From Archangium gephyra (GTDB lineage: Bacteria; Myxococcota; Myxococcia; Myxococcales; Myxococcaceae), in contig NZ_CP011509.1 of assembly GCF_001027285.1 (NCBI RefSeq), positions 2,674,501 through 2,738,500 of the forward strand: a stretch of DNA of 64,000 nt, written 5' to 3'. Of the stretch, positions 15,822-25,442 are shown in pieces. Every line of letters begins with the position of its first letter. Positions within the stretch are counted from its first letter, which is position 1. Under the pieces are notes generated by a model, which worked only from the letters and a program-made list of their open reading frames with translations, was not told the DNA's origin and did no database searches. The position numbers were made by a program, and so were the translations under genes.

Positions 15822-17738
15822 ATGATCATCGGCACCGCGGGGCACATCGATCACGGCAAGACGTCACTGGTCAAGGCGCTCACCGGTATCGACACCGACA
15901 GGCTCAAGGAGGAGAAGCGCCGCGGCATCACGCTGGAGCTGGGCTTCGCGCACCTGAAGCTCGACGATGGCACGGTGGCGGGCGTGGTGGACGTGCCCGG
16001 CCACGAGCGCTTCGTGAAGGCGATGGTGGCGGGCGCGGGCGGGGTGGACCTGGCGGTGCTGGTGGTGGCGGCGGACGAGGGCGTCATGCCCCAGACGCGC
16101 GAGCACCTGGACATCTGCCGGCTGCTCGGCGTGAAGGCCGGAGTCATCGCGCTCACCAAGTCGGACCTGCTGGCGGAGCTGGGCGCCGAGTGGCGCGCGC
16201 TGGTGGAGGCGGACCTGGCCACGCTGGTGGGAGGCACCTTCCTGGAGGGGGCGCCGGTGGTGCCCGTGTCCTCGAAGACGGGGGAGGGGCTGGACGCGCT
16301 GCGGGCCGCGCTCACCCGTGCGGCCCGGGGGCTGCCCTCGCGCCCCGCGGAGGGCCCCGCCTTCCTGCCGGTGGACCGGGCCTTCACCATCAAGGGTTTT
16401 GGCACGGTGGTGACGGGCACGTTGCTGTCGGGCACCTTCGCGGTGGAGGACGCCGTCTCGCTGCTGCCGGGCCTGCCGGGCCCGTTGCGGGTGCGTGGGC
16501 TGCAGATGCACGGCGAGGCGGTGCAGAAGGTGGCGGCGGGCCAGCGCACCGCGGTGAACCTGACGGGCGTGGAGCCCGAGGCGATCGCGCGCGGCATGGT
16601 GCTGGTGAAGGCCGGCGAGGTGCCCGAGACGCGCATGCTGGACGTGGAGCTGAGCCTGCTGCCTGCGGCGGAGGAGGGACTTCCCAAGCGCCGCAAGCTG
16701 TTGCTGCACCTGGGCACCGCGCAGGTGGAGGCCACGGTGGCGCTGTTGGACTTGGAGAAGCTGGAGCCGGGAGAGACGGCGCTCGTGCAGTTGCGGCTGT
16801 CCGAGCCGTTGGCGGCGTTGCCGGGCCAGCGCTTCATCCTCCGGGGCTCGCGCGCGCTGCCGGGCCGGGGCGCCACGCTGGCCGGTGGGCGCGTGCTGTC
16901 CATCACCCCGCCGCGCCGCCGCAAGGGAGGCTCCGAGGTGGTGGCCCCGCTGCTGGAGGCGGACGCGGGAGGCCAGGTGACGTGGTTGCTGCGCCACGCG
17001 GGCTACCGGGGCCTCACGCAGCAGGAACTCTTCGCCCGCTCGGCGCTCGCGCCCAAGGTGCTCTCGCGGACGCTGGAGTTGCTGGGCGCGCGGGGCACGG
17101 CGCTGCTGGTGGACCGGGAGAAGCGGCTGTACGTCTCGGGCGAGGTGTTCGAGGGCCTGCAGGCGCGTGCCCTGGCGCTGCTCGCGGCCTTCCACGAGCG
17201 GGAGCCGCTGCGCGAGGGCCTGTCGCGCGAGGAGCTGCGCCAGCGGTTGTCGGGCGAGCTGGACGCGCGCCTCTTCACGCGGGTGGTGCAGGCGCTGACG
17301 GACGCGGGGAAGGTGGAGGTGGACAAGGAGGTGGTGCGTCTCAAGGGGCGTGGCCGGACGCTGTCGCTGGACGAGGACGCGGCGCGCACGCGGCTGGTGG
17401 CGGACCTCTCCGCGGCGGGCCTGGCGCCGCCCACGCTCAACGAGCTGGCCGAGCGGCTGCGGTTGCCGGCGGCCCGGGTGCAGGAGTTGCTCAAGGTGGC
17501 GGTGGCCGAGGGCCGGGTGGTGCGCGTCAGCGAGGAGCTGTTCTTCGACACCGGGGCACTGGCGGGGTTGAAGGAGCGGCTGGTTGCCCACCTGCGCGAG
17601 AAGAAGGAGATTTCCACCCAGGCCTTCAAGGAGCTGGTGGGCCAGAGCCGGAAGTTCGTGATTCCCCTCTCGGAGTACTTCGACCGCGAGAAGGTGACGC
17701 TGCGGGTCGGAGAGAAACGGGTGCTGCGGCGCGCATGA
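15822..17738 (+). CDS. selB: Selenocysteine-specific translation elongation factor
   Basis: 638 residues starting [14 protein letters not shown]. GTPase motifs: GHIDHGKT (7-14), DVPGHE, TKSD. EF-Tu-like beta-barrels follow, then C-terminal winged-helix domains (about 380-638), the part that reads the SECIS element in selenoprotein mRNAs. It delivers Sec-tRNA(Sec) to UGA codons. Neither selA/selD nor tRNA-Sec is in the window, so other loci must supply them if the pathway works. An AGGGG site precedes ATG 15822. Its stop overlaps the start of the downstream kinase (ATGA), indicating coupled translation with an unrelated regulatory pair. Confidence 0.95.
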
Positions 17739-20236
17739 GGACGAAGCGTTACAGCGAGGCGGCCCTGCGAGAGCTCATCGAGGCTCTCGGCAACCCCATC
17801 TACGTGGCGCGTGGGGGCCGGGTGTGGGCGGCCAACGAGGCCTACCTGGAGATGCTGGGGCGGGGCCGCGAGCAGGTGGAGGGCCACCTCTTCCTGGACT
17901 TCGTGCGTCCGGAGGATCGGGTGCGGCTGGAGGCGCGTCAGCGGCGGCGGGAGGAGGGGACGCTGACGGAGTCCGTCCCCCAGCGCTACCTGGTGCCGAA
18001 GGCGGACGGGGGGATGATGGAGGTGGCGTCCCACGTGCAGCCGGTGGAGGTGGAGGGGGTGGGCACGGCGATGCTCATCAGCTGCCTGGTGCTGGGGCAG
18101 CGGCCGGCGGAGCTGGTGGTGGCCGAGCGCCTGGTGGAGACGAGCGCGGAGCTCGTCGCGGCGCGCTCGGAGGAGGCGGTGCGGCGGGTGGCGCTGGCGG
18201 GCCTCACCAGCGCGGGCTTCTCGGCGAGCTTCCTGGTGCGGGACGGGGAGCGCTTCCTCGCCCGGGATGGAGCCCTGCCGCCGGAGGATGGGGCACTGGG
18301 GCTGCAAGCGCTGTCCGAGGGGCGGCCCGTCTTCGGCCCGCTCCGGAATGAGGCCACGCCCGTCTACCTTCCGCTGGGCACCACGCTGTCGGAGGTGCTG
18401 TGGGTGTGCGGGGTGGGGCTGTCTCCCTCCTACGGCTCGGTGCTGGCGCTCTTCGCCAAGGTGGTGGGCGCGGCCCTCACCGACGCGCGGCTGCTGACGG
18501 ACGTGGAGCGGGGCCGGTGGGAGATGGTGGCGGTGGCCGAGGCGGCGCGCTTCGTCGCCCAACCGGAGCCGCCCTCGCCCGAGGACTTCCTCTCGCGCCT
18601 GGCCTCGCTGCTCGGCGCCGAGGCCGTGCTGCTGTACGTTCCCCGGACGCCCGAGGGCGAGCTCGCCCTCACGGCGCAGGTGGGGCTGGATGGGGAGCTG
18701 CAGGTGCGGTTCGCCGTGCCGCTGGGCGGCCTGTCGCCGTCCACGGTGGTGGCGCGGGGCGCGGTGCTCTCCAACGAGTCCGAGGAGCGCGCGCTGCTGG
18801 AGGCCACGGGCGGCCGTCTGGGCTGTGGCGCGGCGGTGCGTCTGGCGCATGGGGGCCACGCGCGGGGGCTCCTCCAGGTGCTGCGTCCGCCCGGACGCCC
18901 CTTCGCCGGAGCGGACCTGCGGCTGCTGGGCACGCTGTCCGAGCTGTTGATGACGCTGTTGGATCAGCGCCGCCTGCGCACCGAGTCCGCCCGGCAGCTC
19001 GCGGACACGCGCCTGCTGCTGGACCTGGCCCGGACCACCACCGCCACGCTGGAGGTGGCCAGCATCCTGGACGTGGCCTCGGACTTCCTCGTCAAGCTGC
19101 TGGACGTCTCCAACTGCTTCATCCTCCTGCACGACGAGCAGGCCGGGGTGTTGCGAGGCGCCGCCGCCTCCGCCACCCACCGCGACTTCTTCCGCGGTGT
19201 GGTGATTGCGCTGGATGACGCCGGCAGCGTCGCCGCGCGCGTGGCCCGTGAGCGCCGGCCCGTCGCCATTCCGGACCTGTCGAAGGTCGAGGGCATGGAG
19301 AAGCGTGAGCTCGTCCGCCGCTTCGAGGAGAAGGCGCTGCTGGCCCTGCCGCTCACCTCGCGCGAGGAGCTCATCGGCGTGGTGCTGCTGGACGACACCC
19401 GCCAGCCGCGCAGCTTCGACACCGCCTTCGTCGAGCTGGCCGAGGCCACCTGTGGGCAGATCGCCCTGGCCATCGCCAATGCCCGGCTCTACGAGTCGCT
19501 CTGGGCCTCGTACGCGGAGCTGGCCGCCGCGCGCGCGGAGATGGTGCAGCGCGAGCGCTTCGCCGCGCTCGGTGAGCTGTCCGCCATCGTGGCCCACGAG
19601 GTGCGCAACCCGCTGGGCGTCATCTTCAACGCCGTGGCCTCGCTGCGCCGCCTGCTCAAGGCCGAGGGCGACGCGGCCATGCTGCTGGACATCCTCGCGG
19701 AGGAGAGCGACCGGCTCAACCGCATGGTGGGAGACCTGTTGGACTTCACCCGCCCGCGAGAGACGATCCTGCAGCCCGAGGACGTGCCCCGGGTGCTGCA
19801 GGACGCGCTGGACTTCGCGCAGCAGAGCGCTTCCAACCGTGTCACCCTCGCCGTGGACGTGGCGGAGGACGTGCCCCGCGTGCCGATGGACCGGCGGCTC
19901 ATCCGCCAGGCCCTCGTCAACGTGCTGGTCAACGCCATCCAGGCCATGCCGCAGGGCGGGGTGGTGCAGGTGCGCGCCCGCCGCGAGGCCCACGGCAACA
20001 AGGACGTGCTGCGCATCGACGTGGCGGACCAGGGCTGTGGCATCCCCACCGAGCTGGTACACCGCGTCTTCGAGCCCTTCTTCACCACCAAGGCCCAGGG
20101 CACGGGGCTGGGGCTCGCCGTGGTCAAGCGCAACGTCGAGGTGCACCACGGCGAGCTGGCTCTGGAGAGCACGCCGGGCCGTGGCACCACTTTCACCTTC
20201 CGTCTTCCCCTCAGCCAGCCGACGAGTCCGCCGTGA
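17735..20236 (+). CDS. NtrB-like PAS/GAF sensor histidine kinase
   Basis: 833 residues from the ATG that overlaps the selB stop by 4 nt. Order: PAS domain (about 10-115), GAF-like regions (about 125-250, 270-400 and 415-575), dimerisation/phosphoacceptor box with H621 (IVAHEVRNPLG), and HATPase (DQGCGIPTELVHRVFEPFFT, GTGLGLAVVKR). There is no transmembrane segment, so it should sense a cytosolic cue. Its stop overlaps the GTG of the downstream sigma-54 activator, making that protein its obvious partner. The following sRNA array with -24/-12 promoters is the likely output. In M. xanthus a kinase/response-regulator pair is likewise found upstream of pxr (from memory). Confidence 0.92.
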   Translation: MRTKRYSEAALRELIEALGNPIYVARGGRVWAANEAYLEMLGRGREQVEGHLFLDFVRPEDRVRLEARQRRREEGTLTESVPQRYLVPKADGGMMEVASHVQPVEVEGVGTAMLISCLVLGQRPAELVVAERLVETSAELVAARSEEAVRRVALAGLTSAGFSASFLVRDGERFLARDGALPPEDGALGLQALSEGRPVFGPLRNEATPVYLPLGTTLSEVLWVCGVGLSPSYGSVLALFAKVVGAALTDARLLTDVERGRWEMVAVAEAARFVAQPEPPSPEDFLSRLASLLGAEAVLLYVPRTPEGELALTAQVGLDGELQVRFAVPLGGLSPSTVVARGAVLSNESEERALLEATGGRLGCGAAVRLAHGGHARGLLQVLRPPGRPFAGADLRLLGTLSELLMTLLDQRRLRTESARQLADTRLLLDLARTTTATLEVASILDVASDFLVKLLDVSNCFILLHDEQAGVLRGAAASATHRDFFRGVVIALDDAGSVAARVARERRPVAIPDLSKVEGMEKRELVRRFEEKALLALPLTSREELIGVVLLDDTRQPRSFDTAFVELAEATCGQIALAIANARLYESLWASYAELAAARAEMVQRERFAALGELSAIVAHEVRNPLGVIFNAVASLRRLLKAEGDAAMLLDILAEESDRLNRMVGDLLDFTRPRETILQPEDVPRVLQDALDFAQQSASNRVTLAVDVAEDVPRVPMDRRLIRQALVNVLVNAIQAMPQGGVVQVRARREAHGNKDVLRIDVADQGCGIPTELVHRVFEPFFTTKAQGTGLGLAVVKRNVEVHHGELALESTPGRGTTFTFRLPLSQPTSPP

Positions 20237-21669
20237 ACGACGCATCGAAGCCCCTGCCGCGTGGTTGCATCCTGGTCGTGGACGACCAGCGCAACATGCG
20301 AGCCACCACCGCGCTCCTCCTGCGCTCCGAGGGCTACTCCGTCCTCGAGGCCGCCACGGGGGAGGAGGCACTCGCCACCCTGTCCAACGGTGGGGTGGAC
20401 CTGATGCTGACGGACCTGAAGATGGAGCCCATGGACGGGCTCACCCTGCTGAAGAAGGCGCTGGAGGTGGCTCCGCGTCTTCAGGTCATCATGATGACGG
20501 CCTTCGGCTCCATCGAGAGCGCGGTGGAGGCCATGCGGCAGGGGGCGTTCGACTACGTCACCAAGCCCTTCAAGGAGGGCGAGCTGCGCTACCGGGTGGA
20601 GCGCGCGCTGGAGCGGGCCCGGATGCAGACGACGTTGGATCTGCTCACCGGCGAGTTCAACGAGCGCCACGGCCTGAGCGCGCTGGTGGGCCGCAGCGCG
20701 GCGATGCGCGAGCTGACGTCGCGTCTGACGCGCGTGGCGCAGAGCGACGCCACGGTGCTGGTGCAGGGCGAGAGCGGTACGGGCAAGGAGCTCGTCGCCC
20801 GCGCGGTGCACGCGCACAGCCGGCGCAAGGACAAGCCCTTCGTGCCGGTCAACTGCGCCGCCATCTCCGAGATGCTGCTGGAGAGCGAGCTGTTCGGCCA
20901 CGCCAAGGGGGCCTTCACGGGCGCGGTGCGGGCGCGGCGCGGCCTCGTGGAGGAGGCGGATGGCGGCACCCTCTTCATCGACGAGGTGACGGAGACGACG
21001 CCGGCCTTCCAGTCCAAGCTGCTGCGCACGCTGCAGGAGGGCGAGGTGCGGCGCGTGGGCGAGTCCACCTCCGTGAAGGTGGACGTGCGGATCGTCGCCG
21101 CCACCAACCGGGACATCGAGCTGGAGGTGCGCGAGAAGCGCTTCCGGCAGGACCTGTATTACCGGCTCAACGTGGTGACGCTGCGGGTGCCGCCCCTGCG
21201 CGAGCGCCTGGAGGACGTGCCGGAGCTGGCCGAGCACTTCCTCAAGCGGGCCAACGCGCGCAGCCCCAACCCCAAGCGGCTGTCGGAGGCGGCGGTGGGG
21301 CACCTGATGGGCTACAGCTTCCCGGGCAACGTGCGCGAGCTGGAGAACCTGGTGGAGCAGGCGGCGGCGCTGGCCGAGGGCGTGGAGCTGCTGCCCGAGG
21401 ACTTCCCGCTGCGCCCCAACACGCGCGTGGAGGCCAGTGGCCCGATGGGGAGCCCGGTGGGGATGTCCTCGCTGGACACCAGCATGCGGATGCCCACGCT
21501 GGCCGAGGCGGTGGAGGAGGCCGAGCGGCGGGCCATTGCCCAGGCCCTGGAGAAGCACGGGGTGGACCTGGGCCGCGTGGCCGAGGAGCTGTCCGTCTCC
21601 TCCACCACGCTGTGGCGCAAGATGAAGCGCCTCAACCTGCGTCCGTCCGGGGCGGATCATCGCGACTGA
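20233..21669 (+). CDS. NtrC-like sigma-54-dependent response regulator
   Basis: 478 residues. Receiver with acidic pair D17/D18 and phosphoacceptor D61 (TDLKMEPMDG), AAA+ domain with Walker A GESGTGKE (179-186), the sigma-54-contacting GAFTGA loop (226-231) and DGGTLFIDEV, and a C-terminal Fis-type HTH ('VDLGRVAEELSVSSTTLWRK'). It should bind upstream enhancer sites and open sigma-54 promoters by ATP hydrolysis. GTG 20233 overlaps the kinase stop (GTGA). Four -24/-12 promoters with a repeated upstream motif follow within 1.3 kb, so it is the prime candidate activator of the Pxr RNAs; that assignment is inference from position. Confidence 0.94.
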   Translation: MNDASKPLPRGCILVVDDQRNMRATTALLLRSEGYSVLEAATGEEALATLSNGGVDLMLTDLKMEPMDGLTLLKKALEVAPRLQVIMMTAFGSIESAVEAMRQGAFDYVTKPFKEGELRYRVERALERARMQTTLDLLTGEFNERHGLSALVGRSAAMRELTSRLTRVAQSDATVLVQGESGTGKELVARAVHAHSRRKDKPFVPVNCAAISEMLLESELFGHAKGAFTGAVRARRGLVEEADGGTLFIDEVTETTPAFQSKLLRTLQEGEVRRVGESTSVKVDVRIVAATNRDIELEVREKRFRQDLYYRLNVVTLRVPPLRERLEDVPELAEHFLKRANARSPNPKRLSEAAVGHLMGYSFPGNVRELENLVEQAAALAEGVELLPEDFPLRPNTRVEASGPMGSPVGMSSLDTSMRMPTLAEAVEEAERRAIAQALEKHGVDLGRVAEELSVSSTTLWRKMKRLNLRPSGADHRD

Positions 21670-21782
21670 ATCCGCTCGGGAATTGTGCGCCAGGGCACAC
21701 CCCGCCAGGAATGAAATGCCCCTTCACTCCTGAAAAGCGGAAGCGCTTGAGATGATTGCGGATTTTCACATCTGCAAAGGGA

Positions 21783-21796
21783 TTGCAGGGATGCAA
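21783..21796 (+). promoter_or_regulatory. Candidate activator site, sRNA unit 1
   Basis: Inverted repeat TTGCA-GGGA-TGCAA, about 80-90 bp before the -24 element, a usual distance for an NtrC-type enhancer. It occupies the same place as the CAGGGCTGCAA pairs in units 2-4. Confidence 0.5.
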
Positions 21797-21873
21797 TGCA
21801 CGGGGAGGGGCCGCGGAGGCCTCTTGGATTGCTAAGTGCCTGAAGTTACTGGACTCTGAGATTCCAGAAGCGC

Positions 21874-21890
21874 TGGCACGGTGAGTGCTA
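21874..21890 (+). promoter_or_regulatory. Sigma-54 (-24/-12) promoter, sRNA unit 1
   Basis: TGGCACG-GTGA-GTGCT: GG (21875-21876) and GC (21887-21888) are separated by exactly 10 bp, as sigma-54 requires. Predicted transcription start near 21900. Confidence 0.85.
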
Positions 21891-21899
21891 AAGCATGGA

Positions 21900-22024
21900 C
21901 CCGGAGCACGTCGACGTGGCGCTGAAGAGGTTCCCCCCCACCCCTTCAGTGTCTCCGATGAGCTTAATTTAGAAGAACCCGCGGCCCGGTCCCCTTCTTG
22001 GGGGTACCGGGCCGCCTTCTTTTT
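21900..22024 (+). ncRNA. pxr: Pxr-family developmental sRNA, copy 1
   Basis: A ~125-nt RNA is predicted from the start 12 nt past the -12 element to the T-run. The first hairpin has CTGAAG (21922-21927) / CTTCAG (21944-21949) as stem and seven consecutive C in its loop (21933-21939). A GC-rich terminator hairpin closes the RNA. In Myxococcus xanthus, Pxr is a ~130-nt RNA that blocks fruiting-body development while nutrients last; a change in its run of seven C restored development, and the gene lies between an NtrC-like regulator and a GNAT gene (from memory of the literature). Length, C7 loop and the same flanking genes support the call. This copy is the most diverged of the four, with a CACGTCGACGTG palindrome near its 5' end. 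Confidence 0.85.
21981..22024 (+). terminator. Terminator of sRNA copy 1
   Basis: Stem GCGGCCCGGT (21981-21990) / ACCGGGCCGC (22006-22015), extended by CCCC/GGGG across a bulge, then CTTCTTTTT. Confidence 0.9.
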
Positions 22025-22067
22025 GGGCTTTGCGAGAAGCCCGCTTTTCACATCTGCAAAGGCATTT

Positions 22068-22091
22068 CAGGGCTGCAATGCAGGGCTGCAA
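22068..22091 (+). promoter_or_regulatory. Candidate activator site, sRNA unit 2
   Basis: Two direct copies of CAGGGCTGCAA spaced 13 bp start to start, about 75-100 bp before the -24 element. Confidence 0.5.
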
Positions 22092-22165
22092 GCCGCGGGG
22101 GAGGGGAGGGCGAGCCCGAGATGCCAGATGCCCGGAATCACAAGACATTCGAGGCCCGAAAGGGC

Positions 22166-22182
22166 TGGCACGATGGCTGCTA
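22166..22182 (+). promoter_or_regulatory. Sigma-54 (-24/-12) promoter, sRNA unit 2
   Basis: TGGCACG-ATGG-CTGCT with the 10-bp GG/GC spacing (22167-22168, 22179-22180). Predicted start near 22192. Confidence 0.82.
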
Positions 22183-22191
22183 ATGGTTGGA

Positions 22192-22314
22192 CCCAGAGCA
22201 CGTCGAAGTGAGGCTGAAGAGGTTCCCCCCCACCACTTCAGCACTTCCGGTGAGCTTCCGAGAAGAACCCGCGGCCCGGTCCCCTTTCTTGAGGGTGCCG
22301 GGCCGCCTTCTTTT
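22192..22314 (+). ncRNA. pxr: Pxr-family sRNA, copy 2
   Basis: ~123 nt, same layout as copy 1: -24/-12 promoter, CTGAAG/CTTCAG stem around C7, terminator. The base after the A that follows the C-run differs (ACCACTTCAG against ACCCCTTCAG), which removes Cs near the loop. Regulation should match the other copies. Confidence 0.83.
22271..22314 (+). terminator. Terminator of sRNA copy 2
   Basis: Stem GCGGCCCGG (22271-22279) / CCGGGCCGC (22298-22306), then CTTCTTTT. Confidence 0.9.
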
Positions 22315-22380
22315 CGGGCCCTGGGCCAGCTCCCGCGCACCGCGCCCTCCCGAGGTGTTTTCACTTCTGCAAGGGGATTT

Positions 22381-22404
22381 CAGGGCTGCAATGCAGGGCT
22401 GCAA
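22381..22404 (+). promoter_or_regulatory. Candidate activator site, sRNA unit 3
   Basis: Same double CAGGGCTGCAA motif as unit 2, about 75-100 bp before the -24 element. Confidence 0.5.
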
Positions 22405-22477
22405 TGGCGCGGGCGGCACCGTGGGGGCCCATGCGCCAGGTGCCTGGAATCACAGGACATTCGAGGCCGGGAAGGGC

Positions 22478-22494
22478 TGGCACGGCGAGTGCTA
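22478..22494 (+). promoter_or_regulatory. Sigma-54 (-24/-12) promoter, sRNA unit 3
   Basis: TGGCACG-GCGA-GTGCT, GG/GC spacing 10 bp (22479-22480, 22491-22492). Predicted start near 22504. Confidence 0.85.
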
Positions 22495-22503
22495 AAGACT
22501 GGA

Positions 22504-22626
22504 TACGGAGCACGTCGAAGCGAGGCTGAAGTGGTTCCCCCCCACCCCTTCAGCACCTTCCGGTGAGCTTCTTGAGAAGACCTGCGGCCCGGTTCCCTTC
22601 CTGAGGGTGCCGGGCCGCCTTCTTTT
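22504..22626 (+). ncRNA. pxr: Pxr-family sRNA, copy 3
   Basis: ~123 nt. CTGAAG-TGGTT-C7-ACCC-CTTCAG hairpin, then terminator. By eye the predicted transcript is identical to copy 4, so both would give one RNA species at double dosage. Confidence 0.84.
22584..22626 (+). terminator. Terminator of sRNA copy 3
   Basis: Stem GCGGCCCGG (22584-22592) / CCGGGCCGC (22610-22618), then CTTCTTTT. Confidence 0.9.
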
Positions 22627-22696
22627 CGGGCCCTGGGCCCCGCTCCTTCGCTCCACCACGCCCTCCCGAAGCGTTTTCATTTCTGCAAGGGGATTT

Positions 22697-22720
22697 CAGA
22701 GCTGCAATGCAGGGCTGCAA
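22697..22720 (+). promoter_or_regulatory. Candidate activator site, sRNA unit 4
   Basis: Double motif with one change from unit 3: the first half reads CAGAGCTGCAA (A at 22700). Confidence 0.5.
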
Positions 22721-22793
22721 TGGCGCGGGCGGCACCGTGGGGGCCCATGCGCCAGGTACCTGGAATCACAGGACATTCGAGGCCGGGAAGGGC

Positions 22794-22810
22794 TGGCACG
22801 GCGAGTGCTA
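22794..22810 (+). promoter_or_regulatory. Sigma-54 (-24/-12) promoter, sRNA unit 4
   Basis: Identical to unit 3: TGGCACG-GCGA-GTGCT, GG at 22795-22796 and GC at 22807-22808. Predicted start near 22820. Confidence 0.85.
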
Positions 22811-22819
22811 AAGACTGGA

Positions 22820-22942
22820 TACGGAGCACGTCGAAGCGAGGCTGAAGTGGTTCCCCCCCACCCCTTCAGCACCTTCCGGTGAGCTTCTTGAGAAGACCTG
22901 CGGCCCGGTTCCCTTCCTGAGGGTGCCGGGCCGCCTTCTTTT
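22820..22942 (+). ncRNA. pxr: Pxr-family sRNA, copy 4
   Basis: ~123 nt, sequence apparently identical to copy 3, with its own promoter and terminator. It ends 53 bp before the GNAT start codon, so read-through would reach that gene. Confidence 0.84.
22900..22942 (+). terminator. Terminator of sRNA copy 4
   Basis: Stem GCGGCCCGG (22900-22908) / CCGGGCCGC (22926-22934), then CTTCTTTT. Confidence 0.9.
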
Positions 22943-22995
22943 ATACGCTCCAGGATTCGCGCCCGGGCGAGCGGCGCGGAGGAGGGGCTTCCGAC

Positions 22996-23829
22996 ATGCG
23001 CGATGCACACAGCGAGGCGCCGGGGCTGCGGCCGGCGCGGGTGGAGGACCATGCCGACTTCGTCCGGCTCTTCGGGGAGCTGGGCGTGGAGGAGTCACCG
23101 CCGCCGCTGGACGTCTGGGTGTCGGACCTCGTGAAGCGAGCCTTCTTCCTGGACGGGACAGCGGGGGCGGGGGCGTACGCGCTCGTCGATGTCCTGGGAG
23201 AGACCGGCTACGTGGTGAACCTGGTGGTGGCGCCGGACCAGCGGGGCAGGGGGTTGGGGCGGAAGGTGATGCGGGAGCTCGCCACCTGGTTCCGGGCGAG
23301 GGGTTGCCGCGAGTGGATGCTGTATGTGAAGCCGGACAACGAGCCGGCGCTGGCGTTGTACGGCGCGGTGGGGATGAAGGCGGGGCGGCTGGAGACCACG
23401 TGGCGCCTGTCGAGGGACCACCTGGAGGCCCTGCCACTGGCGCCAGCGGAGCTCGAGGTGGTGCCGGTGGCCGGGGCCGACCTCGCCCCGCTCACCCAGG
23501 CCTTCGGGTTGGTGCCGGGCAAGCTGGCCCGCTTCGCCACGCAGAGCACACACCGGTTGCGGCGCTTGAGGGACCCGGAACACCCGGAGGTGGCGGGGCT
23601 GGGGCTGATGGATGTGCGGCCCCAGGCGCGTGTGCTGACGCCCTTTTTCGCGGCGACTCCCGCACACGCCCGAGCGCTCCTGGAAGCGGCCTTCCTCGAG
23701 CTCGGGGGCGCGCAGGAGCTGCGCGTGGTGACGGGGGACTCGGAGCTCGGGTCCCTCCTGAGCGATGCGGGAGCGCGGGCCGTGCTGCGGACGCTGGCGA
23801 TGCGGGGGCCGCTGCCGGACCCGCAATGA
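22996..23829 (+). CDS. GNAT-family N-acetyltransferase
   Basis: 277 residues, ATG 22996 after GGAGGGG. The N-terminal half (about 10-145) is a GNAT domain: VVNLVVAPDQRGRGLGRKVM carries the acetyl-CoA-binding Q/R-x-x-G-x-G motif, and 'NEPALALYGAVGMKAG' the usual C-terminal signature. The second half (about 150-277) looks like a degenerate second module. It transfers an acetyl group from acetyl-CoA to an unknown amine. It lies directly downstream of the sRNA array, the same neighbour that flanks pxr in M. xanthus (from memory), and converges with the nuo operon. Confidence 0.9.
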   Translation: MRDAHSEAPGLRPARVEDHADFVRLFGELGVEESPPPLDVWVSDLVKRAFFLDGTAGAGAYALVDVLGETGYVVNLVVAPDQRGRGLGRKVMRELATWFRARGCREWMLYVKPDNEPALALYGAVGMKAGRLETTWRLSRDHLEALPLAPAELEVVPVAGADLAPLTQAFGLVPGKLARFATQSTHRLRRLRDPEHPEVAGLGLMDVRPQARVLTPFFAATPAHARALLEAAFLELGGAQELRVVTGDSELGSLLSDAGARAVLRTLAMRGPLPDPQ

Positions 23830-23882: not shown

Positions 23883-25442
23883 TCAGCGGGTGAACAGCGT
23901 CCCGGCCTGGGCGATCCACTCGGTGAGGGGGCCGGGCATGATGCCGAGCAGCACCACGGCGACGGTGGAGACCACCAGGGCCACCTCGGTCATCCAGCTG
24001 CGCTCGAGGGGGTGAGCGCCCTCGGGCACGGGCCGCATGTACATGTAGACGACCACGCGCAGGTAGTAATAGGCGCCGGCCGCGCTGGAGAGCACCGCGA
24101 TGATGGTGAGGCCCACGAGGCCCGCGTCCACGGCGGCACGGAAGAGGATGAGCTTTCCGATGAAGCCGATGGTGGGCGGGATGCCGGCGAGCGACAGCAT
24201 GAAGGCCGCCATGGCGAAGGCCCAACCCGGGCGGCGCTGCGCCAGGCCGCTGAAGCGCTCCAGGTCCCAGGCGGTGCCCTTCTCCTCGTCCTCGCGGCGC
24301 TCCAGCAGGGAGACGACGGCGAAGGCGCCCACCGCGGTGAAGGTGTAGGCGAGCAGGTAGTAGAGGATGCCGCGCAGGGCGTCGACACGGGCCACGGCCT
24401 CGGGGCTGGCGCCGACCAGCGCGCTGGCACCGAGCAGCTTGAACTCCTGGCCCGGGGCGGAGACGAAGAGGGCCGCCACGCCCAGCAGCAGGTAGCCGGC
24501 GTGGGCGATGGAGGAGTAGGCCAGCATGCGCTTCACGTTGCGCTGCGGGATGGCCAGCAGGTTGCCCGCCACCATGGTGAGCAGCGCCAGGGTGGAGAAC
24601 ATGGCGAAGGGCAGCTGCACGTCGATGCCACTGCCCACGCTGACGAACACGCGGACCAGGGCGACGAAGGCGGCGGCCTTCACACCGGCGCTCATGAGCG
24701 CGGTGACGGGGGTGGGAGCGCCCTCGTACACATCCGGCGTCCACATGTGGAAGGGCACCGCGGCCACCTTGAAGGCGAAGCCGGCGGCCACGAGCACGGA
24801 GCCCGCGTAGACGAGCGCCGCGTTGTCGGCCATGGCAGCCTTGAGCGGCTGCGTCATGTCCGCCAGCAGGGTGGTGCCGGTGGCGCCGTAGAGCAGCGCC
24901 GAGCCGTACAGCAGCACCGCCGAGGAGAAGGCGCCGAGGATGAAGTACTTGAAGCCCGCCTCGCTGGGCCGCGTGCCGCGCCGCAAGTACGACGTCAGCG
25001 CGTAGGTGGCGATGGAGAGCACCTCGACGTTGACGAAGAGGGTGATGAGCTCGTTGGACAGGCCCAGCAGGCTCATGCCCGCGCCCGCGAAGAGCATGAG
25101 GGCGTAGAACTCACCGCGCTCGGCGCCGCGCTTGCGCAGGAAGCCGGCCGCGGTGAGCGAGGCCAGCGCCAGCGACACGCAGACGGTGAACGTCAGGAAG
25201 CTGGAGAAGGGGTCCATCACCCCGAAGCCGAGGAACACCGCCCGGGCCGGCTCGGTGAGCAGCGACAGCGACATGATGCCGGCGAGGACGGACGTGGCGG
25301 TGGACAGCACCGCCTGGTAGCCGCGCGTCGAGTGGGCGGAGAGGAACACCTCCGACAGGAGCAGGATGCACGCTCCCACCACCAGGATGACGGCGGGCAG
25401 CAGCGGGAGGAAGTCTGCCGAGGTCAGGTTGGGCAGGTTCAT
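23883..25442 (-). CDS. nuoN: NADH-quinone oxidoreductase subunit N
   Basis: 519 residues, about 14 membrane helices, antiporter-like subunit of complex I. Typical stretches: 'GMSLLGLSNELITLFVNVEV', FKVAAVPFHMWTPDVYEGAPTP, 'MLAYSSIAHAGYLLLG'. It forms one of the proton channels in the inner-membrane arm. Last gene of nuoEFJKLMN, 15 bp after nuoM, followed by the operon terminator. Confidence 0.96.
   Translation of the reverse strand: MNLPNLTSADFLPLLPAVILVVGACILLLSEVFLSAHSTRGYQAVLSTATSVLAGIMSLSLLTEPARAVFLGFGVMDPFSSFLTFTVCVSLALASLTAAGFLRKRGAERGEFYALMLFAGAGMSLLGLSNELITLFVNVEVLSIATYALTSYLRRGTRPSEAGFKYFILGAFSSAVLLYGSALLYGATGTTLLADMTQPLKAAMADNAALVYAGSVLVAAGFAFKVAAVPFHMWTPDVYEGAPTPVTALMSAGVKAAAFVALVRVFVSVGSGIDVQLPFAMFSTLALLTMVAGNLLAIPQRNVKRMLAYSSIAHAGYLLLGVAALFVSAPGQEFKLLGASALVGASPEAVARVDALRGILYYLLAYTFTAVGAFAVVSLLERREDEEKGTAWDLERFSGLAQRRPGWAFAMAAFMLSLAGIPPTIGFIGKLILFRAAVDAGLVGLTIIAVLSSAAGAYYYLRVVVYMYMRPVPEGAHPLERSWMTEVALVVSTVAVVLLGIMPGPLTEWIAQAGTLFTR

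What the first reader, a model, noticed from the sequence alone, without database searches (positions are those of the whole stretch)
21763..22942. Four tandem Pxr-type sRNA genes beside a sigma-54 two-component pair
Each unit carries an exact -24/-12 promoter, a ~123-nt segment with a seven-C hairpin loop, and an intrinsic terminator. The array sits between an NtrC-like activator and a GNAT gene, the same neighbours I recall for pxr in M. xanthus, where one RNA copy gates development by starvation. Multi-copy pxr has, as I recall, been reported in Cystobacter relatives; a four-unit array with separate promoters and terminators allows dosage control or division of labour.
Basis: partly seen in the sequence, partly recalled or inferred. 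Interest (0 to 1): 0.9.

Follow-up and report, generated by a model that had tools for sequence, protein, structure and literature searches.

The report
Four tandem Pxr developmental sRNA genes
A myxobacterial chromosome carries four side-by-side copies of a known small RNA gene that in a relative holds back fruiting-body formation while food lasts; such arrays are already known in this group, but comparing the copies points to an undescribed helix at the start of the RNA and to its likely activator sites.

Summary
Observation confirmed. 21763-22942 holds four tandem Pxr (RF01812) units, each with its own enhancer-like dyads, sigma-54 promoter, C7-loop hairpin and terminator. They lie between pxrK/pxrR-type two-component genes and a GNAT gene. 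Three units pass Rfam's cutoff; unit 1 misses it (72.9 against 80 bits). The interpretation (Pxr) is supported. It is not novel as a kind: tandem Pxr paralogs with separate sigma-54 promoters are published for Cystobacter violaceus and C. minor (three copies). Unit 4 is a recent copy of unit 3, with identical promoter and RNA. Tandem arrays occur in 15 of 96 family genomes searched.

Three results are not in the parts I read of four Pxr papers. (1) The ~14-nt leader between promoter and Rfam's 5' end pairs with the segment drawn as 'SL2'. This helix (P0) covaries more strongly than SL1 or SL2 and forms in the predicted fold of 91 of 93 distinct transcripts. (2) A dyad TTKCA-N4-TGMAA lies in 102 of 103 distinct testable upstream regions; it is the probable PxrR site. 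(3) The downstream GNAT (pxrA type) is syntenic in five genera, not only Myxococcus. Expression, processing, targets and function in this host are untested.

The parts
17735..20236 (+). pxrK-type sensor histidine kinase (PAS, GAF, HisKA, HATPase); ATG at 17735 is my choice of start
   Evidence: reading frame, Pfam, syntenic orthologs
20233..21669 (+). pxrR-type NtrC-like response regulator (receiver, sigma-54 activator, HTH_8)
   Evidence: Pfam; homologs beside pxr in relatives
21764..21796 (+). unit 1 enhancer-like dyads TTTCACATCTGCAA and TTGCAGGGATGCAA
21874..21890 (+). unit 1 sigma-54 (-24/-12) promoter
21900..22023 (+). unit 1 predicted Pxr transcript; C7 loop 21933-21939; leader-helix arms about 21904-21913 and 21956-21965
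   Evidence: 72.9 bits Rfam (below cutoff)
22046..22091 (+). unit 2 enhancer-like dyads (three, the last two overlapping by one base)
22166..22182 (+). unit 2 sigma-54 promoter
22192..22314 (+). unit 2 predicted Pxr transcript; C7 loop 22225-22231; leader-helix arms about 22196-22209 and 22243-22257
   Evidence: 86.4 bits Rfam
22359..22404 (+). unit 3 enhancer-like dyads (three, the last two overlapping by one base)
22478..22494 (+). unit 3 sigma-54 promoter
22504..22626 (+). unit 3 predicted Pxr transcript; C7 loop 22537-22543; leader-helix arms about 22507-22520 and 22556-22571
   Evidence: 81.6 bits Rfam
22675..22720 (+). unit 4 enhancer-like dyads (three, the last two overlapping by one base)
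22794..22810 (+). unit 4 sigma-54 promoter, identical to unit 3
22820..22942 (+). unit 4 predicted Pxr transcript, identical RNA to unit 3; C7 loop 22853-22859; leader-helix arms about 22823-22836 and 22872-22887
   Evidence: 81.6 bits Rfam
22996..23829 (+). GNAT acetyltransferase, probable syntenic ortholog of M. xanthus pxrA (MXAN_1079)
   Evidence: Pfam; one match per genome at E <= 1e-50, directly downstream of pxr

Best explanation
This is a four-unit tandem array of genuine Pxr sRNA genes in an Archangium-type genome. PxrK signals to PxrR; PxrR binds TTKCA-N4-TGMAA dyads about 60-140 bp upstream of each -24 element and drives sigma-54 RNA polymerase at each unit. Each unit makes a primary transcript of about 123-124 nt that ends at its own terminator. 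In that transcript the 5' leader pairs with the segment after SL1 (helix P0), so SL1 with its invariant C7 loop sits at the tip of one long closed hairpin, followed by the SL3 terminator stem. As in M. xanthus the RNA then represses entry into fruiting-body development while nutrients are present, through the C7 loop. Unit 1 is the counterpart of single-copy pxr; units 2-4 descend from an old duplicate, and unit 4 is a recent copy of unit 3. Four parallel units give more RNA and three RNA variants. SHOWN here: sequence anatomy, family membership, covariation of P0, conservation of the dyads, phylogeny of units. INFERRED: transcription from the predicted starts, PxrR as binder of the dyads, role of P0 in folding, stability or processing, repression of development in this host.
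For: Rfam hits. Promoter and loop patterns only at the four units. P0 on 42 aligned representatives: 83.7% of cells paired against 66.4+-1.4 after shuffling and 33.7-44.4% with slid partners, 70 double-change cells against 17-27 slid. One row per genus (20 genera): 80.8% paired against 63.4% with 3' sides swapped between genera, highest of 200 swaps 70.9%. Three of the ten P0 column pairs rank 2nd, 4th and 5th of 6,693 by corrected G-test; the other seven 54th to 5050th. At least five P0 pairs in the MFE of 91 of 93 distinct transcripts; probabilities 0.52-1.0 at the paired leader positions of the window's units. Dyads in 102 of 103 distinct testable upstream regions, at least two in 99; shuffles expect 2.9 and 0.06; the 12 places in the 64-kb window all lie in 21722-22720. 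Later units separate from first units plus single-copy pxr at 99/98 support; the window's four units as one clade rejected, p-AU 7.9e-07. M. xanthus function, PxrK/R dependence and loop requirement: PMC5568312, PMC5684412, PMC10217877 (read in part).
Against: Unit 1 misses Rfam's cutoff. Taken alone, the native leader of unit 2 pairs no better than shuffled leaders (fraction 0.54), nor clearly that of unit 3 (0.215); only unit 1 is clear (0.010); over the family 27 of 46 beat 95% of shuffled leaders and 15 of 46 beat 95% of leaders from other genera. RNAalifold did not itself predict P0 on the alignment. Published paralogs in positions 1 and 3 did not block development in M. xanthus (PMC5568312). 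My distance of unit 3 to M. xanthus (0.124) does not match the published Cb.3 value (0.344), so that match is by position only. The chimera calculation meant to explain those failures does not separate unit 1 from M. xanthus. No expression data.
Confidence: 0.82

Rival explanations
1. Only one unit (unit 2) is a working developmental regulator; units 1, 3 and 4 are decaying or redundant duplicates whose RNAs do not accumulate.
For: Published paralogs Cb.1 and Cb.3 accumulated poorly and failed in M. xanthus, Cb.2 worked (PMC5568312, parts read). Distances of units 1 and 2 to each other and to M. xanthus are near the published Cb.1 and Cb.2 values. Unit 1 is below the Rfam cutoff.
Against: All four keep the C7 loop, promoter, dyads, P0 and terminator. 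First units of this type persist in first position in 8 genomes of two genera (grouping 93/93, not starred). The published constructs placed the alleles behind the M. xanthus upstream region, so, if transcription starts where predicted, with the M. xanthus leader, which replaces one arm of P0 (inference).
Confidence: 0.25
2. Division of labour: the three RNA variants act on different targets or at different times.
For: Units 1, 2 and 3/4 differ in SL1 flanks, P0 and SL3, and first and later units were separate lineages before the two array genera g1 and g6 split.
Against: The loop GGTTCCCCCCCACC is identical in all four and nearly invariant across the family. Later units tend to cluster by genome or species group, with identical or near-identical copies in several genomes, which suits dosage better than specialisation.
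Confidence: 0.2
3. The main role is in cis: PxrR/sigma-54 transcription through a series of leaky terminators sets the level of the downstream GNAT (pxrA).
For: Only 53 bp separate the last terminator from the GNAT start; the simple scan found no sigma-70-type promoter in 21400-23300. pxrA RNA rises when pxr is deleted in M. xanthus, and the authors could not exclude a positional effect (PMC11928866 sections 11, 16).
Against: 3 of 6 genomes of the window's genus and 4 of 4 g6 genomes have arrays but no GNAT match. The evolved strain PX, whose pxr differs by one loop base, also shows raised pxrA (PMC11928866, PMC5684412). The authors predict a separate pxrA promoter in M. xanthus.
Confidence: 0.12
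4. Conserved P0 reflects constraint on the DNA (promoter spacer or initial transcribed region), not an RNA helix.
For: It lies directly downstream of the -12 element and is well conserved within genera.
Against: Compensatory changes with a partner about 40-60 nt away, much rarer in slid or between-genus swapped pairings.
Confidence: 0.07

Closest known systems
[quoted passage not shown] violaceus Cbvi 34 (three copies; PMC5568312, citing an earlier paper not held)
   Same: Same locus downstream of nla19/pxrR, each copy with its own sigma-54 promoter, SL1 conserved. The A. violaceum Cb vi76 records found here hold at least three copies, of which the first and last resemble units 1 and 3 of the window
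   Different: Four units here, the last a copy of the third (6 of 289 mismatches, none in the promoter or RNA); GNAT gene kept downstream; leader helix and enhancer dyads not described in the parts I read
Single-copy Pxr of Myxococcus xanthus (RF01812)
   Same: C7 loop, SL1, SL3, sigma-54 promoter, pxrK/pxrR upstream, GNAT downstream
   Different: One copy there; the SL2 hairpin GGUG-AGU-CACC forms in the leaderless M. xanthus fold but not in the folds of the window's units with leader
Multi-copy sRNA families such as Vibrio Qrr (named in PMC5568312)
   Same: Several sRNA copies with redundant or additive action (PMC5568312); sigma-54 and an NtrC-type activator there are recalled
   Different: Dispersed copies, different RNA and pathway (recalled)

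Membership tests
Pxr sRNA (Rfam RF01812) | Score at or above the curated gathering score of 80 bits (units 2, 3, 4) | tested here: met
   86.4, 81.6, 81.6 bits
Pxr sRNA (Rfam RF01812) | Score at or above the curated gathering score of 80 bits (unit 1) | tested here: not met
   72.9 bits, E 3.5e-12. With leader-inclusive model R1 it scores 113.5 bits, but R1 was built with units 1-3 among its 42 rows
Pxr sRNA (Rfam RF01812) | SL1 with the loop whose fifth base must be C (a C-to-A change there inactivates M. xanthus Pxr, PMC5684412) | tested here: met
   GGTTCCCCCCCACC in all four
Pxr sRNA (Rfam RF01812) | SL3 terminator stem with conserved core | tested here: met
   Folds in all four, alignment columns 89-128
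Pxr sRNA (Rfam RF01812) | SL2 hairpin of the published three-stem model | tested here: not met
   Not in the MFE of any window unit with leader. Family-wide support is weak and mixed: 63.9% of cells paired, shuffled 57.7+-2.4 (1 of 500 as high), slid +1 64.3%; one row per genus 65.6% against 16-58% slid. Published work also reports paralogs 1 and 3 without SL2
Pxr sRNA (Rfam RF01812) | Sigma-54 promoter and position behind pxrR | tested here: met
Pxr sRNA (Rfam RF01812) | Expression as Pxr-L and Pxr-S, loss of Pxr-S on starvation, block of development | not testable with these tools
   needs RNA and mutants
Published tandem Pxr arrays (Cystobacter) | Several pxr copies in tandem, each with a sigma-54 promoter, between pxrR and an NADH dehydrogenase gene | tested here: met
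   next gene past the GNAT is a minus-strand frame at 23883-25442 that I call nuoN by recall, conserved in relatives and not run against Pfam
pxrA (MXAN_1079) | GNAT gene directly downstream of pxr, sole strong homolog in the genome | tested here: met
   34 of 96 family genomes have a match at E <= 1e-50, one per genome, starting within about 120 bp downstream of a pxr hit by the coordinates; 5 of the 34 have one in-frame stop inside the match. MXAN_1079 itself was not fetched

The most novel reading that the evidence does not exclude
Pxr is a two-state RNA. In the primary transcript the leader holds the 'SL2' segment in helix P0; removal of the leader (one way that Pxr-L could become Pxr-S) releases that segment, lets SL2 form where it can (Myxococcus-type sequences), and so makes activity depend on processing. 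Archangium-type units, which have P0 but no SL2, would then be locked in one state or use another switch, which would make tandem copies functionally distinct from single-copy Pxr.
Probability: 0.2. Interest if true: 0.65.

Novelty: new member of a known kind. Interest (0 to 1): 0.45.

Why it matters
Pxr is a case of one small RNA gating entry into multicellular development; its targets and processing are unsettled in the papers read. Arrays with different copy numbers in close relatives are a natural dosage series. The leader helix gives a precise, mutable hypothesis for what the unannotated 5' part of the RNA does, and if the predicted start is right, published cross-species tests exchanged one arm of a helix. 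The dyad motif gives a direct handle on PxrR and its other targets. Finding a pxrA-type gene at the same place in five genera argues against the published view that it arose later than pxr and is found only in Myxococcus species.

Tried and rejected
Direct pairing of the C7 loop with the GNAT start region: median duplex energy -13.0 over 27 loci (window -15.9), but controls gave pxrK -19.9 (45), SelB -10.2 (9), nuoN -6.35 (56) and pxrR -5.6 (65), so the test does not discriminate; the strong pxrK value comes from SelB coding sequence at the overlap. Dropped as evidence.

Chimera explanation of the failed Cystobacter paralogs (M. xanthus leader joined to the window's units): the MFE gained from the leader is 7.0 kcal/mol in M. 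xanthus, 7.2 for chimeric unit 1, 9.1 for unit 2 and 4.4 for unit 3; it fits units 2 and 3 but not unit 1. Kept only as a lead.

Second Pxr-like loci: L048 and L053 (Rfam 35.6 and 38.4 bits) are not among the units with a C7 loop; not pursued. Minus-strand matches of R1 in the window (16.8-27.7 bits) overlap the palindromic terminators.

Rows dropped: of 108 units with a parsed anchor, 46 cluster representatives (under 93% similar) were kept and 42 aligned; L082, L084, L087 and L088 were left out by choice (odd loop end, second locus, and no or only a two-mismatch sigma-54 promoter). All 46 are; L056 has a mis-parsed SL3 and counts as a miss. Three Pxr of small-genome MAGs (L090, L091, L100) and a cut-off unit of L038 were in neither set. 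Dyad count: one search gave 102 of 104 because one row (L037, contig edge) took a wrong stretch; one search repeats it without that row; one unit without promoter and three identical regions are left out. In A1 L009, L018 and L027 were given on the wrong strand; A1 was used only to look. One search's output was cut.
Full report
WHAT IS THERE. The window is bases 2674501-2738500 of a 12,489,432-bp single-contig genome; the length fits Archangium gephyra as I recall it, but no call names it. Between a pxrR-type regulator (20233-21669) and a GNAT gene (22996-23829) lie four direct repeats. cmscan gives RF01812 (Pxr) at 22206-22314 (86.4 bits), 22518-22626 and 22834-22942 (81.6 each), above the cutoff of 80, and at 21914-22023 with 72.9 bits, E 3.5e-12, below it. 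No fifth match in the genome at E <= 0.001. The promoter pattern TGGCAY-N6-TGCTA and the loop core occur four times each in 64 kb, only here.

PRIOR ART. PMC5568312 (parts 1-4 of 6; passages): tandem Pxr paralogs in Cystobacter minor and C. violaceus, each with its own sigma-54 promoter; the second paralog blocks M. xanthus development, the first and third do not and accumulate poorly. PMC5684412 (abstract and outline, sections 3 and 8, first part of section 4, passages): SL1 and SL3 are needed, and a change of the fifth loop base inactivates. PMC10217877 (passages): pxrK/pxrR = MXAN_1077/1078 control Pxr synthesis, and RNase D makes Pxr-L from Pxr-XL. PMC11928866 (sections 11 and 16, passages): pxrA = MXAN_1079, raised without Pxr, reported in Myxococcus species only and as younger than pxr, using an E < 1e-100 and > 80% similarity filter. 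So the array is a new member of a published kind. Paper searches listed no other work on Pxr arrays, on a leader or on PxrR sites; other listed papers that mention Pxr (PMC8963815, PMC8538405, PMC7694542) were not opened, and subscription papers, including the original description and the earlier evolution paper, are not held. The statement that the leader and dyads are undescribed reaches no further than that.

DISTRIBUTION. Rfam Pxr rings in 93 of 195 genomes of the phylum, all in the window's family. A model with the leader (R1) rings in 95 of 96 genomes of that family at E <= 0.001 and, in the phylum at 1e-8, in 96 of 195, the one outside being weak (47.3 bits). R1's E-values are rough and its seeds match by construction; weak matches are a capped list. 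Reading together, tandem arrays of 2-5 are in 15 of 96: the window's genus (g1) 6 of 6, g6 4 of 4, g3 4 of 6, g20 1 of 1; the 27 genomes of g19 (Myxococcus and Pyxidicoccus records) have one hit each at 1e-8. In the collection of 84,980 species the loop-core pattern hits 38 stretches; 37 carry myxobacterial titles, and one is titled Comamonas sp. KCTC 72670, whose contig length equals that of G125, a genome of g19. No viral contig has the pattern.

UNIT HISTORY. With enhancer to terminator aligned, first units plus single-copy pxr (13 rows) separate from later units (30 rows) at 99/98; the window's four units as one clade are rejected (p-AU 7.9e-07); units 3 and 4 are sisters at 100/98. A shorter alignment gave weaker support. 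Units 3 and 4 differ at 6 of 289 positions, all upstream of 22443, so promoter and RNA are identical. In G064 units 2 and 4, and 3 and 5, are nearest each other, and in G092 likewise: apparent block duplications. K2P distances unit 1-2 (0.145), 1-3 (0.238), M. xanthus-1 (0.311) and M. xanthus-2 (0.211) are near the published Cb values 0.144, 0.226, 0.322 and 0.233; M. xanthus-3 (0.124) is not near the published Cb.3 value (0.344), and 2-3 (0.134) is lower than 0.174 (M. xanthus from the AM003 record).

LEADER HELIX. Predicted +1 lies 13-14 nt upstream of the Rfam 5' end. In the fold of each window unit the leader pairs with the segment after SL1 (other units). On a structure-blind MAFFT alignment of 42 representatives the ten pairs are formed in 83.7% of cells (shuffled 66.4+-1.4; slid 33.7-44.4), with 70 double-change cells (slid 17-27) and covariation score 0.533 (slid 0.07-0.14). 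On the same alignment SL1 has 15 double-change cells and score 0.186, SL2 18 and 0.251. SL2 pairs in 63.9% of cells against 57.7+-2.4 shuffled (1 of 500 as high) but 64.3% slid by +1; with one row per genus it does exceed its slid versions (65.6% against 16-58%), so it has weak support, partly perhaps because it shares columns with P0. One row per genus (20 genera, 200 draws), P0: 80.8% paired; 63.4% when 3' sides are exchanged between genera, at most 70.9%. Three P0 column pairs rank 2nd, 4th and 5th of 6,693; the others 54, 69, 187, 217, 788, 833 and 5050. RNAalifold on the alignment did not itself predict P0 or lower SL1, probably because of gap placement. In the energy test 27 of 46 native leaders beat at least 95% of shuffled leaders and 15 of 46 beat at least 95% of leaders from other genera; in the window only unit 1 does so, against shuffles. 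91 of 93 distinct transcripts have at least five leader-tail pairs in the MFE; misses are L044:5083 and L056 (mis-parsed). In the MFE without leader, unit 3 loses the lower part of SL1; with it SL1 forms. P0 and SL2 use the same bases, so they exclude each other in Myxococcus-type RNAs.

ENHANCERS. TTKCA-N4-TGMAA with at most one mismatch occurs in 102 of 103 distinct regions 40-140 bp upstream of the -24 element, at least twice in 99; shuffles expect 2.9 and 0.06; the commonest start-to-start spacing is 19 bp (67 of 129), found in all four window units. In the whole window the 12 places all lie in 21722-22720; three overlap a neighbour by one base. PxrR as the binder is inferred from position, promoter type and its Fis-type HTH.

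GNAT. 40 of 96 family genomes match at E <= 1e-15, one match each. The 34 at E <= 1e-50 start within about 120 bp downstream of pxr by coordinates: window's genus 3 of 6, g7 (includes Hyalangium versicolor) 3 of 7, g8 1 of 1, g19 26 of 27, g20 1 of 1; five of the 34 carry one in-frame stop in the match. The 27th g19 genome has a fragment at the locus; five weaker matches (E 5e-18 to 1.5e-25) lie elsewhere. Trees of GNAT and PxrR (27 rows) agree on the window's genus with g20 (100/100 and 96/92) but not on the deeper placement of that group, which is unsure in both; distance correlation 0.63. This fits one old gene lost several times better than an origin within Myxococcus; independent acquisition at the same spot is not formally excluded.

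VERDICT. Real, correctly read, ordinary as a kind; the leader helix and the dyads are the parts worth following.

Noticed in passing
L055:5046-5166 (-) and L056:5071-5191 (-): In the MAG titled Archangium sp. SZUA-606 (G139) two more Pxr-like units with sigma-54 promoter, two dyads and C7 loop lie on contig stretches without a pxrR match; one stretch carries a sufB-type gene, the other a polyphosphate kinase gene. Dispersed copies, or contamination.
   Followed up: partly
L084:5068-5199 (-): G110 has a second Pxr-like unit (69.9 bits with R1) with promoter and two dyads on a contig stretch without a pxrR match.
   Followed up: partly
L042:4624-4735 (-) and L046:4368-4704 (-): In two g3 MAGs (G067, G071) the Pxr units next to pxrR lie on the opposite strand to pxrR.
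   Followed up: no
L090, L091, L100: Small-genome MAGs (2.1-2.7 Mb, g23) keep a Pxr with loop GGTTTCCCCCCACC near nuoN but no pxrR match at E <= 1e-5 within the 10-kb locus.
   Followed up: partly
L087:5062-5187 (-) and L088:4054-4165 (+): Two g21 MAGs have Pxr without a good sigma-54 promoter; the upstream sequence looks rather sigma-70-like by eye, and the one testable (L088) has no dyads.
   Followed up: no
   Followed up: no
window 17735-17738 and 20233-20236: selB, pxrK and pxrR frames overlap by four bases in series, suggesting one operon with a selenocysteine elongation factor; adjacency is kept in many of the loci.
   Followed up: no
L123 (G125): A record titled Comamonas sp. KCTC 72670 carries a Myxococcus-type pxr locus and has the contig length of a genome of g19: probably a mislabelled record.
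   Followed up: no
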